Made by a program: the position numbers and the translations under genes. A DNA stretch of 36,759 nt. Origin: a virus. The notes under the pieces are model-generated. The model saw only the letters and a list, made by a program, of their open reading frames with translations, was not told the DNA's origin and ran no database searches. This document shows, piece after piece, positions 1,007 through 18,611 of the stretch; the stretch's first letter is position 1, and each line of letters opens with the position of its first letter. Location: the IMG/VR virus record IMGVR_UViG_3300042540_000683, positions 1-36,759 of that record. One strand, 5' to 3'.

Positions 1007-1750
1007 TTAAAAGGGAAGGTCCACGTCTAACCATTGAACACTAAACCCATTGTTTTCTTCTAATAATCTATTCACTTTGACAAACACACCTTCTGTGTCC
1101 CATTCTATTCCTTTATAAGAAGCACTAGCTGGGTGACTCACCTCAAACACATGTGTAAATATACCTGTGTATTTTTTGTATCTAGCTGCGTCCTTACCAA
1201 GAAAGACAATTGGTACACCTAAGTGGTTTATAATTTCCTCAAACAGATATTTTACAAGAGGTTCCCATATTTCCATATGACTTCCTGCTTTGTCTTTCTC
1301 TGTTGTTAATGCCGCATTGAACATTAGAACGCCTTGATGAGCTAAGAAGCTCACATCTGGATTCTCTATAATATTCAAGTTTAACCCATCGTAGAACTCT
1401 TTCTCCATAGCTCTATAGAATTGATCTAATGATGGTTGTACCTGTTCTGTTACAGAGCAACCCATTAATAATCCATCAGCTACAGGAGCATCATTCTTAA
1501 ATGTGTGATATGGACACATACCTACCAAGACCACTTTGAGATCATCTAATGATGTTTCTTTAAAGCATCTCCATACATGCATAGATATAGGAGCAATCTT
1601 TTTTCCTCTCTTTGCTTCTGCTTTCAGGAATGCATAAATTTTATCACATTCTTCACTTTCTATGAATGGACGCATCTTTGCATGCCAAGATGGATGGAAT
1701 TGATGTTTAAAATTTTCCCAATTTAATTTTCCTTTTCTTTGTATTTCCAT
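1007..1750 (-). CDS. ung: Uracil-DNA glycosylase, family 1-like, with altered catalytic motif
   Basis: The 247-residue length fits family 1 UDG, which excises uracil from DNA to start base excision repair. The water-activating loop, normally GQDPYH, reads GMCPYH at residues 77-82, so the usual catalytic Asp is Cys; the Tyr is kept. MFNAALT (143-149) matches the uracil-recognition strand with its Asn, and HPASAS (206-211) matches the HPSPLS minor-groove loop. The start at 1750 overlaps the stop of the GIY-YIG gene, and the first eight residues may have been supplied by that insertion. crAss-like phages typically carry a UDG in their replication block. Activity is uncertain because of the Asp-to-Cys change. 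Confidence 0.85.
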   Translation of the reverse strand: MEIQRKGKLNWENFKHQFHPSWHAKMRPFIESEECDKIYAFLKAEAKRGKKIAPISMHVWRCFKETSLDDLKVVLVGMCPYHTFKNDAPVADGLLMGCSVTEQVQPSLDQFYRAMEKEFYDGLNLNIIENPDVSFLAHQGVLMFNAALTTEKDKAGSHMEIWEPLVKYLFEEIINHLGVPIVFLGKDAARYKKYTGIFTHVFEVSHPASASYKGIEWDTEGVFVKVNRLLEENNGFSVQWLDVDLPF

Positions 1751-2289
1751 ATAAATTTTTTATGTGTTTTTCTTAAACCATTACATACACCAGTTATATT
1801 TGATTGATTATAACCTAATATATCTCTAACTTGACTTGCACCAAGCCATTCTCTAATAAAATTACCTTCCAAATCATATTGTAAAATAGGTTTATATTTA
1901 GAAAGAGTATTATTTTTTAAATGTTCTTCTGTCATTTTTTTACCTTTTTTTACTTTACTCATTTTTTCAATAGTTTCTTTAGAATGACTGTAATTTTCTC
2001 TTCCTGGTTTCATAAGATTGAATCCAAATTCATCATTTATAGAATTAAAAAAATTAATCCAATATTCTTCTTTTTCACATAAATTTTCAATTGCACATCT
2101 TTCAATTATAAAAAAATTGAAGTTTTTTTCTCCATGCTTATTCCAAGAACTTTGTAAATGTGGGTTTACATGTTTATTGTTTCTAAGAGCATATTTGTGA
2201 CTTGCAAATCTTGAACTTATAGATTTTCCTTTTCCAATATAAATTTTATTGGAAATAATGTTTTTAATACCATAAATGCCTGTTTTCAT
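1723..2289 (-). CDS. GIY-YIG homing endonuclease
   Basis: The 188-residue protein has the GIY-YIG nuclease signature at its N-terminus: GIYGI at residues 4-8 and KIYIGKG at 15-21, followed by an Arg (SSRFASH) and a downstream Glu in KEEYW that fit the active site. The C-terminal part (ILQYDLEGNFIREW, then SQVRDILGY) is a NUMOD1-type DNA-binding helix-turn-helix typical of homing endonucleases. Its 3' end overlaps the UDG start by 28 bases, and short copies of the UDG 5' sequence flank it. It is therefore a mobile gene inserted at the UDG 5' end. It has its own -7 promoter element. Confidence 0.93.
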   Translation of the reverse strand: MKTGIYGIKNIISNKIYIGKGKSISSRFASHKYALRNNKHVNPHLQSSWNKHGEKNFNFFIIERCAIENLCEKEEYWINFFNSINDEFGFNLMKPGRENYSHSKETIEKMSKVKKGKKMTEEHLKNNTLSKYKPILQYDLEGNFIREWLGASQVRDILGYNQSNITGVCNGLRKTHKKFIWKYKEKEN

Positions 2290-2306
2290 AATAAAGTTAT
2301 TTTTTA

Positions 2307-2314
2307 CAAATATA
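2307..2314 (-). promoter_or_regulatory. -7 promoter element of the GIY-YIG gene
   Basis: The coding strand reads TATATTTG, matching the Bacteroidota -7 consensus TAnnTTTG, about 18 bases upstream of the GIY-YIG start codon. No TTG lies at ideal -33 spacing (the nearest is 26 bases away), so strength is unknown. Expression separate from the operon would suit a selfish gene. Confidence 0.5.
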
Positions 2315-2344
2315 CAAAATTATTCTTTATTAAATTCTCCCAAT

Positions 2345-2521
2345 TCATGACGATAATGATATTTTTCTATGGAAGAACTTAGTCAATATAGATTCTAAGT
2401 TCTCAATGCTTATACACTCTACTTCATTACCACGAGTTGTTTGTAACCATTCAACTTCTTCTCTAATGTTTTCTTCAAGTATATCTAAATATTTCTCTTC
2501 TACGGTTAAAAAATCACTCAT
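2345..2521 (-). CDS. Small acidic protein, unknown function
   Basis: This 58-residue ORF starts at an ATG at 2521 that overlaps the primase stop as ATGA, the coupling used throughout this operon. It begins MSDFLTVEEKYLDILEEN and is predicted helical and acidic, with no recognised motif. Its stop codon (TGA) overlaps an ATG that opens the short reading MNWENL. That matches the UDG N-terminus and is probably the UDG start as it was before the GIY-YIG gene was inserted. Confidence 0.6.
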   Translation of the reverse strand: MSDFLTVEEKYLDILEENIREEVEWLQTTRGNEVECISIENLESILTKFFHRKISLSS

Positions 2522-13916: not shown

Positions 13917-14465
13917 TTATTTCTTTTTAAATTGTTTAAACCAACCTCTAACATTTTCCACTTCTTGAATTTCTTGATTGAATTTTATTAGTAGTTGAAT
14001 TACTTCTTCATCACTATACTTATTATTGTCTTGTTCTTTTTGCCATTTAACACCTCTAACAAAAGCATCTACTTCATCTCCATAATAAGATAATTCAGCA
14101 TACTTTTTAGCTTCTTCAAGTGTTTCTTGTTTAGGTTTACAATCACAACGACCCATAGTACATCTACTTGTAAAATCAAAAGGACAATCTAAATCTTGTT
14201 TAGGTTCTTCTTTTGGAATGATTAAACCATAAACATTAACAGATAAAACACTTTCATCTTCATTGTGCCATTTATTGTTTACAGTTTCAACTTCAACCTC
14301 CTCACAACTTGGATTCTTAACAAACCATTCTAAAAACTCGTCAGGAATAGTTTGTACACCATCTTTGATTAGCGAGTCATCAGTAGATAATAATATTTCT
14401 TTATATCCTGTTTCAGATTGTAAATACCATTTATCTTTATGCTTAATTACTTTCATAATCTTCAA
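13917..14465 (-). CDS. C-terminal part of a gene apparently split by the HNH endonuclease
   Basis: This 182-residue protein contains IPDEFLEWFVKNPSCEEVEV, then KEEPKQ and a Cys cluster (CPFDFTSRCTMGRCDC, which may bind zinc), ending with a helical segment. From memory, the LIKDGVQ...FLEWFVKNPSCE block in Bacteroidota phage and prophage proteins normally follows an N-terminal module beginning MKNIHILPT and containing NIYITNDEEIKEG. Here that module is a separate short ORF at 15047-15205, and an HNH gene lies between. Translation probably starts at 14465 or 14456, inside the 3' end of the HNH gene. Confidence 0.7.
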   Translation of the reverse strand: MKIMKVIKHKDKWYLQSETGYKEILLSTDDSLIKDGVQTIPDEFLEWFVKNPSCEEVEVETVNNKWHNEDESVLSVNVYGLIIPKEEPKQDLDCPFDFTSRCTMGRCDCKPKQETLEEAKKYAELSYYGDEVDAFVRGVKWQKEQDNNKYSDEEVIQLLIKFNQEIQEVENVRGWFKQFKKK

Positions 14466-14994
14466 ATTTTATATTTTTATATTTCATTGTTCCTCTTGAC
14501 ATTGATTGTCTTATTGTTTTACCATATTTAACATCTCCAAATAAAACAATAGATGCTTCAGAAGCAGAGCCAAAAATAAGTTCTTGTCCATTTTCAAGTA
14601 TTGCTTTTATCTTTTTACCAGCAGATGAATTTACTCCTGTCTTACCTATGAAATGATGTGGCTTGTTTGATTTAGAATAAGGAATAGGTCTTAACATAAG
14701 CACTTCTCTTGAGTGTTTTACATTTTCAGACCTACTCATCCATTCTAAGTTTTCTAAACTATTGTTTAACTTATCTCCATCAATATGATTTACAGTTTCA
14801 AGATTTAAAGGATTAGTTATAAATGCTTCTGCTAATAACCTATGAGTTCTTCTTGATTTGTTTGCTATGTTTACTTGATAATAACCATGTGAACTAATAG
14901 ATTGAGAAAGTATTTTTCCTTTTAACTTTCTTCTAATTTGTCCTAAAACATTTATCTCATATTCACTAAAACTTGGTATTGTTTTCCATTCCAT
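14443..14994 (-). CDS. HNH homing endonuclease (NUMOD4-HNH)
   Basis: An N-terminal NUMOD4 segment (EWKTIPSFSEYEINVLGQIR) and a HNH_3 nuclease core (THRLLAEAFI, then NHIDGDKLNNSLENLEW) are followed by a NUMOD1-like segment (ASEASIVLF). The ATG at 14994 is chosen because it opens directly on the NUMOD4 domain and sits downstream of a good promoter; an ATG at 15033 would overlap that promoter. The 184-residue protein is a free-standing homing endonuclease. It separates two pieces that look like one ancestral gene, and its 3' end overlaps the downstream piece by 23 bases. Confidence 0.9.
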   Translation of the reverse strand: MEWKTIPSFSEYEINVLGQIRRKLKGKILSQSISSHGYYQVNIANKSRRTHRLLAEAFITNPLNLETVNHIDGDKLNNSLENLEWMSRSENVKHSREVLMLRPIPYSKSNKPHHFIGKTGVNSSAGKKIKAILENGQELIFGSASEASIVLFGDVKYGKTIRQSMSRGTMKYKNIKFEDYESN

Positions 14995-15019
14995 AATTTG
15001 ATTATTTAAAATTAATATG

Positions 15020-15050
15020 CAAATATAAAACAATTATATTTATAAATCAA
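15020..15050 (-). promoter_or_regulatory. Bacteroidota-type promoter of the HNH gene
   Basis: On the coding strand TTG (15050-15048) and TATATTTG (15027-15020) are separated by 20 bases, matching TTG-N17-23-TAnnTTTG. The HNH start is 25 bases further on. Confidence 0.6.
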
Positions 15051-17480: not shown

Positions 17481-18183
17481 CATTTTGTTAATAACTTGTT
17501 GTCACTTTACTTGCATATGTCTAGGACATGTTGTAGATTTACACCATATCTAAAACATAATTACTATGACACTACAATACATTTCAGGCTTTTTTGATGC
17601 TGATGGTTCAATTACTATGAGTAAAAGTTCTAAAAATGATACTTATAAATGTATCAAAATAGATTTTACTAACTGTTATATAACAATTCTTGAAGAGATT
17701 CAAAAATATTTGTTAGATGAACATAGTATTAAAACTTATATGTCAAAAAAACCTTCTAGAAAAAAAAACCATAATATTGGTTATTCTTTATCTTGTAATA
17801 GTAATCAAGAATGTTTGAAACTTTGTAGACTTCTGGATTCTCATCATCCTAAAAAGTTACATCGTATAAATACAGTCTTAAAATACCATGATGCAGTTAC
17901 CATTCGTAATGGTAAATACACAGACAAACAAGTTACAAGAAAGTTAGCCTACGAGAGACTATTCTTTCTTCCTACATTTCTGTAGGGATCGGACTATATC
18001 ATCATCTGTTCTAGATGTTGCTTACTGTGGGCTCACCGTAGTGTCCCTAGTCTCTGAACCTTCTCACTTCTTCCAGTGAGCTTGGCTGCTGATTGGCATA
18101 TTACCCTCGCAGGTGTAACTTAGCGTTCCAGCAATTCAAGCAATTTTTAATTACATATTCCTATGTAATGGGTCCAATTTCCA
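17481..18183 (-). mobile_element. Group I self-splicing intron in the tmRNA T-loop
   Basis: The conserved core is readable in order on the minus strand. P is AATTGCTGGAACGCTAAG (18136-18119), Q is AATCAGCAGCCAAGC (18094-18080), R is GGTTCAGAGACTAGGG (18060-18045), and S is GATATAGTCC (18000-17991). A guide sequence GGACCC (18175-18170) pairs with exon GGGTT to form P1 with a U-G pair at the 5' splice site after 18184. The intron ends in G (17481), as required. The length is 703 bases. Most of the sequence after S is occupied by an antisense LAGLIDADG gene. Splice sites are fixed within a base by restoration of a perfect T-arm. Confidence 0.92.
17566..17985 (+). CDS. LAGLIDADG homing endonuclease, antisense in the intron
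   Basis: The 139-residue protein has one LAGLIDADG motif, YISGFFDADGSI at residues 5-16, so it should act as a homodimer. A basic region (MSKKPSRKKNHN) and SLSCNSNQECLKLCRLLDSH follow, typical of the family. It is on the plus strand, opposite to the tmRNA and intron, and its stop is five bases from the intron S/P7 element. It would cut intronless ssrA genes to spread the intron. Antisense placement keeps its mRNA out of the folded intron. The end KLAYERLFFLPTFL may be slightly truncated. Confidence 0.88.
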   Translation: MTLQYISGFFDADGSITMSKSSKNDTYKCIKIDFTNCYITILEEIQKYLLDEHSIKTYMSKKPSRKKNHNIGYSLSCNSNQECLKLCRLLDSHHPKKLHRINTVLKYHDAVTIRNGKYTDKQVTRKLAYERLFFLPTFL

Positions 18184-18611
18184 AACCCTCGTCCAAAATT
18201 ATTTTCAAAAATACAATTTATACAGCTTTTTTGATACGGTTTTAAAGTTGGAGTATCATACAACTAGGATCGACTGATAAACAATCGAGAAACCACCACT
18301 CTGTTTAATCTAACAGAGAAATCTTTATTTAGGCTGCTACAGCAACTTCTTCTCCTAATAAAGAGAATACTTTGTTCATGTTAGCTTCGATTTGTGCGTT
18401 TGCTCCTAGAGCCACTACACGAGAATTGTTTTTGCCATTTATTATATTCATCTTAGTTTACAGTTATCTCTCTGGCTGATTGTATTAATTACTGGTAACC
18501 TGTCAAAACCTGTTAGCCCCAAAAATACACTTTTTACAGAAGTGTGAAACTGTTTAGCTTCTAACAGATTATCAGTTCTGACGCTTTACACAGCTTAGCT
18601 ATTTATCCCTG

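What the first reader, a model, noticed from the sequence alone, without database searches (positions are those of the whole stretch)
1707..2350. GIY-YIG gene inserted at the UDG start with duplicated N-terminal codons
Just upstream of the element, an ATG overlapping the previous stop opens MNWENL; the current UDG reads KLNWENF. The DNA copies AATTGGGAGAATTTAA and AATTGGGAAAATTTTAA flank the endonuclease gene. The simplest reading is that the UDG originally began at about 2348 in an ATGA overlap, and the element inserted behind its first codons while bringing a near-copy that restored the frame. The UDG now uses a start inside the element.
Basis: partly seen in the sequence, partly recalled or inferred. 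Interest (0 to 1): 0.6.

Follow-up and report, generated by a model that had tools for sequence, protein, structure and literature searches.

The report
Homing gene replacing neighbour gene's start
A selfish DNA-cutting gene has jumped into the first codons of a phage DNA-repair gene and brought a replacement start with it, leaving the old start behind as a scrap; about nine similar insertions sit in related phages, so this looks like a regular way for such genes to spread without destroying the gene they hit.

Summary
All 63 IMG/VR UDG relatives start at the codon matching Leu9 of the window UDG; none has the MEIQRKGK extension. The closest, L001 (100% in orf58, 98% in UDG), is the exact empty site: orf58's TGA overlaps ATGAATTGGGAGAATTT^CAAACATC. 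The window keeps those 17 nt (2348-2332). A 622-nt cassette follows (2331-1710) with an intact I-TevI-like GIY-YIG gene and a near-copy of UDG nt 4-17. UDG now starts at an ATG inside the cassette (1750), overlapping the endonuclease gene by 28 nt.

It is not a one-off. Relatives show about nine more insertions with a displaced gene-end scrap on one side of a cassette and a complete gene on the other: five at 5' ends, four at 3' ends. In two, the end now in use is clearly foreign: L226 has a ~240-bp tract of ~70% identity between 99%-identical flanks, and the L034 primase is 100% L060-like before the join but 43% after it, where it is 83-94% like other lineages.

Best model: one-sided homing, homologous on the gene side and end-joined at the cut on the other. 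A fungal mitochondrial 3'-end version is known; I found no 5'-end or phage report.

The parts
2332..2348 (-). Displaced native UDG start (scrap), ATGAATTGGGAGAATTT; its 3' edge is the predicted cleavage/insertion point
   Evidence: 17/17 identical to the L001 UDG start at the same place behind orf58
1710..2331 (-). Inserted cassette, 622 nt relative to the L001 empty site
2307..2314 (-). TATATTTG, possible Bacteroidetes-type -7 promoter element of the endonuclease gene
   Evidence: TAnnTTTG lies within 70 nt upstream of 7/23 endonuclease ORFs against 16/289 other ORFs; suggestive only
1723..2289 (-). GIY-YIG homing endonuclease gene, 188 aa, intact I-TevI-like catalytic domain with weak NUMOD3/NUMOD1 matches behind it
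   Evidence: PF01541 E 7.6e-7; aligns to I-TevI structures 1mk0/1ln0 E 4e-11; PHROG 314 homing endonuclease E 2e-27
1710..1750 (-). Replacement UDG 5' end carried by the cassette: new ATG at 1750, MEIQRKGKLNWENF, with the near-copy AATTGGGAAAATTT at 1723-1710
   Evidence: Reading frame; no relative has the 8-residue extension
1007..1750 (-). Uracil-DNA glycosylase gene, 247 aa, target of the insertion
   Evidence: PF03167 E 6e-7; 63 relatives
2345..2521 (-). 58-aa ORF upstream whose TGA overlapped the native UDG ATG (ATGA)
   Evidence: 100% identical in L001, relatives in about 43 loci

Best explanation
A free-standing GIY-YIG homing endonuclease gene sits 17 nt inside the UDG gene, at the site that it (or its ancestor) cuts, and got there by one-sided homing. 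The endonuclease cut an element-free phage after ATGAATTGGGAGAATTT. The UDG side of the break was repaired by homologous copying from a donor whose endonuclease gene lies directly upstream of UDG; this brought in the endonuclease gene and the donor's UDG start. The other side had no homology, because upstream genes differ between these phages, so the copied strand was end-joined to the old cut end and the native UDG start stayed behind as a scrap. UDG is now translated from an ATG inside the cassette, overlapping the 3' end of the endonuclease gene. Shown: empty site, exact join, scrap, new reading frame, intact endonuclease frame, and the same anatomy at about nine other places. Inferred: that this endonuclease made the cut, that the cut lay at the scrap's edge, the one-sided repair route, and use of the ATG at 1750.
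For: Exact empty site in L001 and start at the same codon in 63/63 relatives. Endonuclease with I-TevI catalytic residues kept. Same architecture at other genes: 5' ends in L044, L204, L220, L224/L226, L225; 3' ends in L028, L034/L264, L219/L227, L021. In the sibling cases with close relatives the scrap matches the element-free relative while the copy in use does not. L226 vs L253 shows a one-sided conversion tract: ~99% up to the join, ~70% for ~240 bp on the gene side, then 99-100%. The L034 primase is a hybrid: 100% L060 before the join, 43% after it, but 94/83/67% to L264/L265/L267 there. L028, L034 and L264 are inserted at one and the same primase point with different nuclease ORFs. Neighbouring gene content differs widely between relatives.
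Against: In the window itself the carried stretch is short and nearly native (13 of 14 nt), so a foreign origin is not shown there; UDG vs L001 has no sharp conversion tract (3% vs about 1.7% difference on the two sides). No donor with this endonuclease beside UDG was found. L021 has the same anatomy with cargo that is not a recognised nuclease. Many other GIY-YIG genes in these phages are inserted between genes without any scrap. No cleavage has been measured.
Confidence: 0.68

Rival explanations
1. Simple target duplication: a staggered or filled-in break duplicated about 14 bp of UDG when the endonuclease gene was inserted, and the two copies drifted apart afterwards.
For: In the window the two copies are of similar length and differ by one base in 14; L225 also has a short one.
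Against: Sibling cases have duplicated ends of about 25 to 95 bp, and over 400 bp of replaced end in L034, which no single staggered cut gives; there the copy in use is foreign, not drifted. GIY-YIG enzymes are known to leave short overhangs (general knowledge).
Confidence: 0.17
2. General illegitimate recombination at gene ends: the cassette arrived by chance exchange between diverged phages inside UDG, and the endonuclease gene is only a passenger.
For: L021 has the same anatomy at the UDG 3' end with a cargo ORF that is not a recognised nuclease. The UDG 5' end also exchanges without an endonuclease: L004 differs from the window at 16 of the first 39 nt but at 3 of the next 218.
Against: Nearly all scraps found flank nuclease genes: 6 loci in 96 kb around GIY-YIG genes, against one clear case without a nuclease in about 591 kb of UDG loci. 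One primase point was hit in L028, L034 and L264.
Confidence: 0.1
3. Assembly artefact: a chimeric contig joins two related phages.
For: The exact joins were found in no other contig searched, although records very near the window may be left out of those searches.
Against: 17/17 match at the syntenic point, intact endonuclease frame, preserved UDG frame, and similar anatomy in other contigs, some shared by two related phages (L224/L226, L219/L227).
Confidence: 0.03

Closest known systems
Fungal mitochondrial mobile ORFs forming gene hybrids (Glomus atp6, atp9, cox2, nad3; Allomyces atp6), PMC3630166
   Same: A homing endonuclease ORF (LAGLIDADG or GIY-YIG) inside a gene, a foreign gene end in use, the native end left as a displaced copy on the far side.
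   Different: All cases described there are C-terminal and mitochondrial. The window case is N-terminal, supplies a new start codon overlapping the endonuclease gene, and is in a phage.
Free-standing T4 endonucleases and intronless homing (Seg, MobE), PMC2988022
   Same: Phage-borne free-standing GIY-YIG or HNH endonuclease genes next to replication genes; overlap with neighbouring ORFs; co-conversion of flanks.
   Different: T4 enzymes cut hundreds to thousands of bp from their gene and home with homology on both flanks, so no scrap is described; here the insertion lies inside the gene and a scrap remains.
Endonuclease insertions that split phage genes (mobE in Aeh1 nrdA, mobA in T4 gene 60), PMC2988022
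   Same: An endonuclease gene lands inside a DNA-metabolism gene.
   Different: Those leave the gene in two translated pieces; here the gene stays whole because the cassette supplies the missing end.
I-TevI (phage T4 td intron)
   Same: Same catalytic domain by sequence.
   Different: I-TevI is intron-encoded; no group I intron was found around this gene.

Membership tests
GIY-YIG homing endonuclease (I-TevI type) | GIY-YIG catalytic domain with Arg27 and Glu75 positions kept | tested here: met
   PF01541 over cut-off; alignment to 1mk0/1ln0
GIY-YIG homing endonuclease (I-TevI type) | Separate C-terminal DNA-binding motifs (NUMOD/HTH) | tested here: inconclusive
   NUMOD3 and NUMOD1 below Pfam cut-offs, E 0.001 and 0.013
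GIY-YIG homing endonuclease (I-TevI type) | Cuts the element-free allele | not testable with these tools
   Needs enzyme assay; predicted site ATGAATTGGGAGAATTT^CAAACATC
Free-standing (intronless) element | Not in an intron or intein | tested here: met
   No Rfam intron here; UDG has its own continuous frame downstream
Gene-hybrid mobile ORF (fungal mitochondrial type) | Native gene end displaced to the far side of the endonuclease ORF | tested here: met
   17-nt native UDG start at 2348-2332
Gene-hybrid mobile ORF (fungal mitochondrial type) | The gene end in use is foreign | tested here: inconclusive
   Clear in siblings L034 and L226; too short to tell in the window
Gene-hybrid mobile ORF (fungal mitochondrial type) | The C-terminal (3') gene end is the one replaced | tested here: not met
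   The window replaces the 5' end; 3' cases occur in relatives L028, L034, L219/L227, L021. It works like that type but is not filed as a member.

The most novel reading that the evidence does not exclude
Phage homing endonucleases of several families regularly spread as cassettes that carry a replacement end (5' or 3') of the replication or repair gene they cut. Repair is homologous on one side and end-joined on the other, so chimeric essential genes are made and a scrap is left whose edge records the cleavage site.
Probability: 0.55. Interest if true: 0.72.

Novelty: new variant of a known kind. Interest (0 to 1): 0.62.

Why it matters
It suggests how selfish endonuclease genes can land inside needed phage genes without an intron, an intein or splitting the gene: they bring the gene's end with them. 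It explains odd gene starts and orphan start/stop fragments near endonucleases, gives a source of chimeric replication proteins, and turns each scrap into a readable, testable prediction of a cleavage site (for this enzyme ATGAATTGGGAGAATTT^CAAACATC).

Tried and rejected
Exact junction searches in viral contigs found no second copy of this insertion; a short UDG-start pattern was too common to be useful. A search for relatives of the endonuclease gave only distant ones, none beside UDG. An intron reading was rejected: no Rfam intron at this place. A conversion tract in the window's own UDG relative to L001 was looked for and is not clear. DNA similarity to the annotated phage collection gave nothing. 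Assembly chimera was considered and judged unlikely. One query was first given in the wrong frame and repeated.

Full report
OBSERVATION. On the minus strand the order is primase (3546-2518), a 58-aa ORF (2521-2345), a GIY-YIG gene (2289-1723) and UDG (1750-1007). The endonuclease gene and UDG overlap by 28 nt in different frames.

EMPTY SITE. Sixty-three IMG/VR loci encode UDG relatives. Every one starts with Met at the codon that is Leu9 in the window (61 read directly; L058 and L059, interrupted further downstream). None has MEIQRKGK. The closest, L001, has the 58-aa ORF at 100%, primase at 99.4% and UDG at 98%, and reads ...CATTATCGTC ATGAATTGGGAGAATTT CAAACATCAATTCC without interruption. 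Relative to L001 the window holds a 622-nt insert (2331-1710) after UDG nt 17 with nothing lost; the 155 bases before the old start are identical.

THE ENDONUCLEASE. It has a GIY-YIG domain (PF01541, E 7.6e-7) with weak NUMOD3 and NUMOD1 matches. It aligns to the I-TevI catalytic-domain structures with GIY, YIG and the Arg27 and Glu75 positions kept, and PHROG 314 calls it a homing endonuclease. TATATTTG lies 18-25 nt before its start; TAnnTTTG occurs upstream of 7/23 endonuclease ORFs against 16/289 others. That is suggestive of an own promoter, not proof.

RECURRENCE. A scan for duplicated gene ends, followed by DNA comparison with element-free relatives, found the same anatomy elsewhere. 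At 5' ends: L044 (C3 gene, scrap about 80 nt), L204 (93-aa gene, about 57 nt), L220 (76-aa gene, about 56 nt), L224/L226 (helicase, about 86 nt) and L225 (94-aa gene, about 25 nt, endonuclease antisense to the gene). At 3' ends: L028 (primase, LAGLIDADG), L034 and L264 (primase), L219/L227 (76-aa gene) and L021 (UDG, cargo not a recognised nuclease). In the 5' cases native sequence runs to a point in the gene, then cassette, then a complete gene whose start is divergent up to about that point or somewhat beyond it. Examples of the point: L220 TGGCATGA^, L044 AAACCA^, L226 TGTCCAAGGTT^. In the window it is GAATTT^. L028, L034 and L264 share one primase point although their nuclease ORFs differ: LAGLIDADG in L028; a NUMOD1 protein that looks GIY-YIG by eye in L034; an ORF that looks HNH by eye but has no significant Pfam match in L264.

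CONTROL. Scraps were called in six loci within 96 kb around 30 GIY-YIG genes. In 591 kb of UDG loci the scans found L021, L028, L034 and L044, of which only L021 has no nuclease. In 576 kb of five relatives without a GIY-YIG match the same scan found only long repeated N-terminal domains and split genes. Many other GIY-YIG genes sit between genes, or in an intron-like gap, without duplication, so this is one mode, not the only one. The counts are small and the loci are related, so they are indicative only.

DIRECTION AND MECHANISM. The scraps match the element-free relatives; the ends in use do not. L226 vs L253 is about 99% up to the join, then about 70% for about 240 bp on the gene side, then 99-100% again. 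That is a conversion tract on one side only. The L034 primase is 100% L060 for 203 residues, then 43% L060 but 94%, 83% and 67% L264, L265 and L267 for 138 residues; in L265 and L267 no scrap of the other primase end was found, so they may carry that end natively. I infer one-sided homing: a cut in the gene, homologous copying from the donor on the gene side, and end-joining at the old cut end where upstream genes differ. The variable gene content of this interval would explain why the second flank lacks homology. For the window this is inference by analogy, because its carried stretch is too short to show a foreign tract.

KNOWN WORK. Fungal mitochondrial mobile ORFs form the same kind of hybrid at C-terminal ends (PMC3630166). 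T4 free-standing endonucleases cut hundreds to thousands of bp from their gene and home through flanking homology (PMC2988022), and the phage insertions inside genes described there split the gene. A 2023 paper reports nuclease genes at exchange boundaries in phages; a term search of it found no gene-end replacement (PMC10448857). In the papers searched I found no 5'-end or phage version, but most subscription literature was not available.

VERDICT. Observation confirmed, interpretation supported. The wider pattern is the more interesting result: a new variant of a known kind.

Noticed in passing
L058 and L059, 3885-5462: UDG is interrupted after codon ~86 by ~860 bp holding an Endonuclease_7-domain ORF (PF02945 E 2e-18); no Rfam intron was called, so the type of element is open. 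A second kind of mobile insertion in the same gene.
   Followed up: partly
window 17566-18194: A group I intron (RF00028, 95 bits) on the minus strand at 17970-18194 lies next to a LAGLIDADG ORF on the plus strand at 17566-17985.
   Followed up: no
window 14443-15033 (-): HNH_3/NUMOD4 endonuclease ORF; a further candidate homing gene in the same window. Its flanks were not examined for scraps.
   Followed up: no
L003-L007, L017, L036 and L252: A 775-aa gene is split after codon 121 by an insert of nearly constant length (994-996 bp) in several relatives; probably an intron or intein.
   Followed up: no
L004, L006, L007 UDG 5' end: The first 39 nt of UDG differ from the window at 16 places, the next 218 nt at only 3: the UDG start is exchanged separately from the rest, without an endonuclease present.
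   Followed up: partly
L021 5650-6150: Replaced UDG 3' end with a ~100-aa cargo ORF that is not a recognised nuclease: either a lost endonuclease or a sign that other genes can travel the same way.
   Followed up: partly
primase-UDG interval of all UDG loci: Gene content between primase and UDG varies from none (L009, L010, L015, L063) to about eight small genes.
   Followed up: partly
L264 3414-4612: A third, different nuclease-like ORF (HNH by eye) with a homologue of the L034 147-aa ORF at the same primase point.
   Followed up: partly
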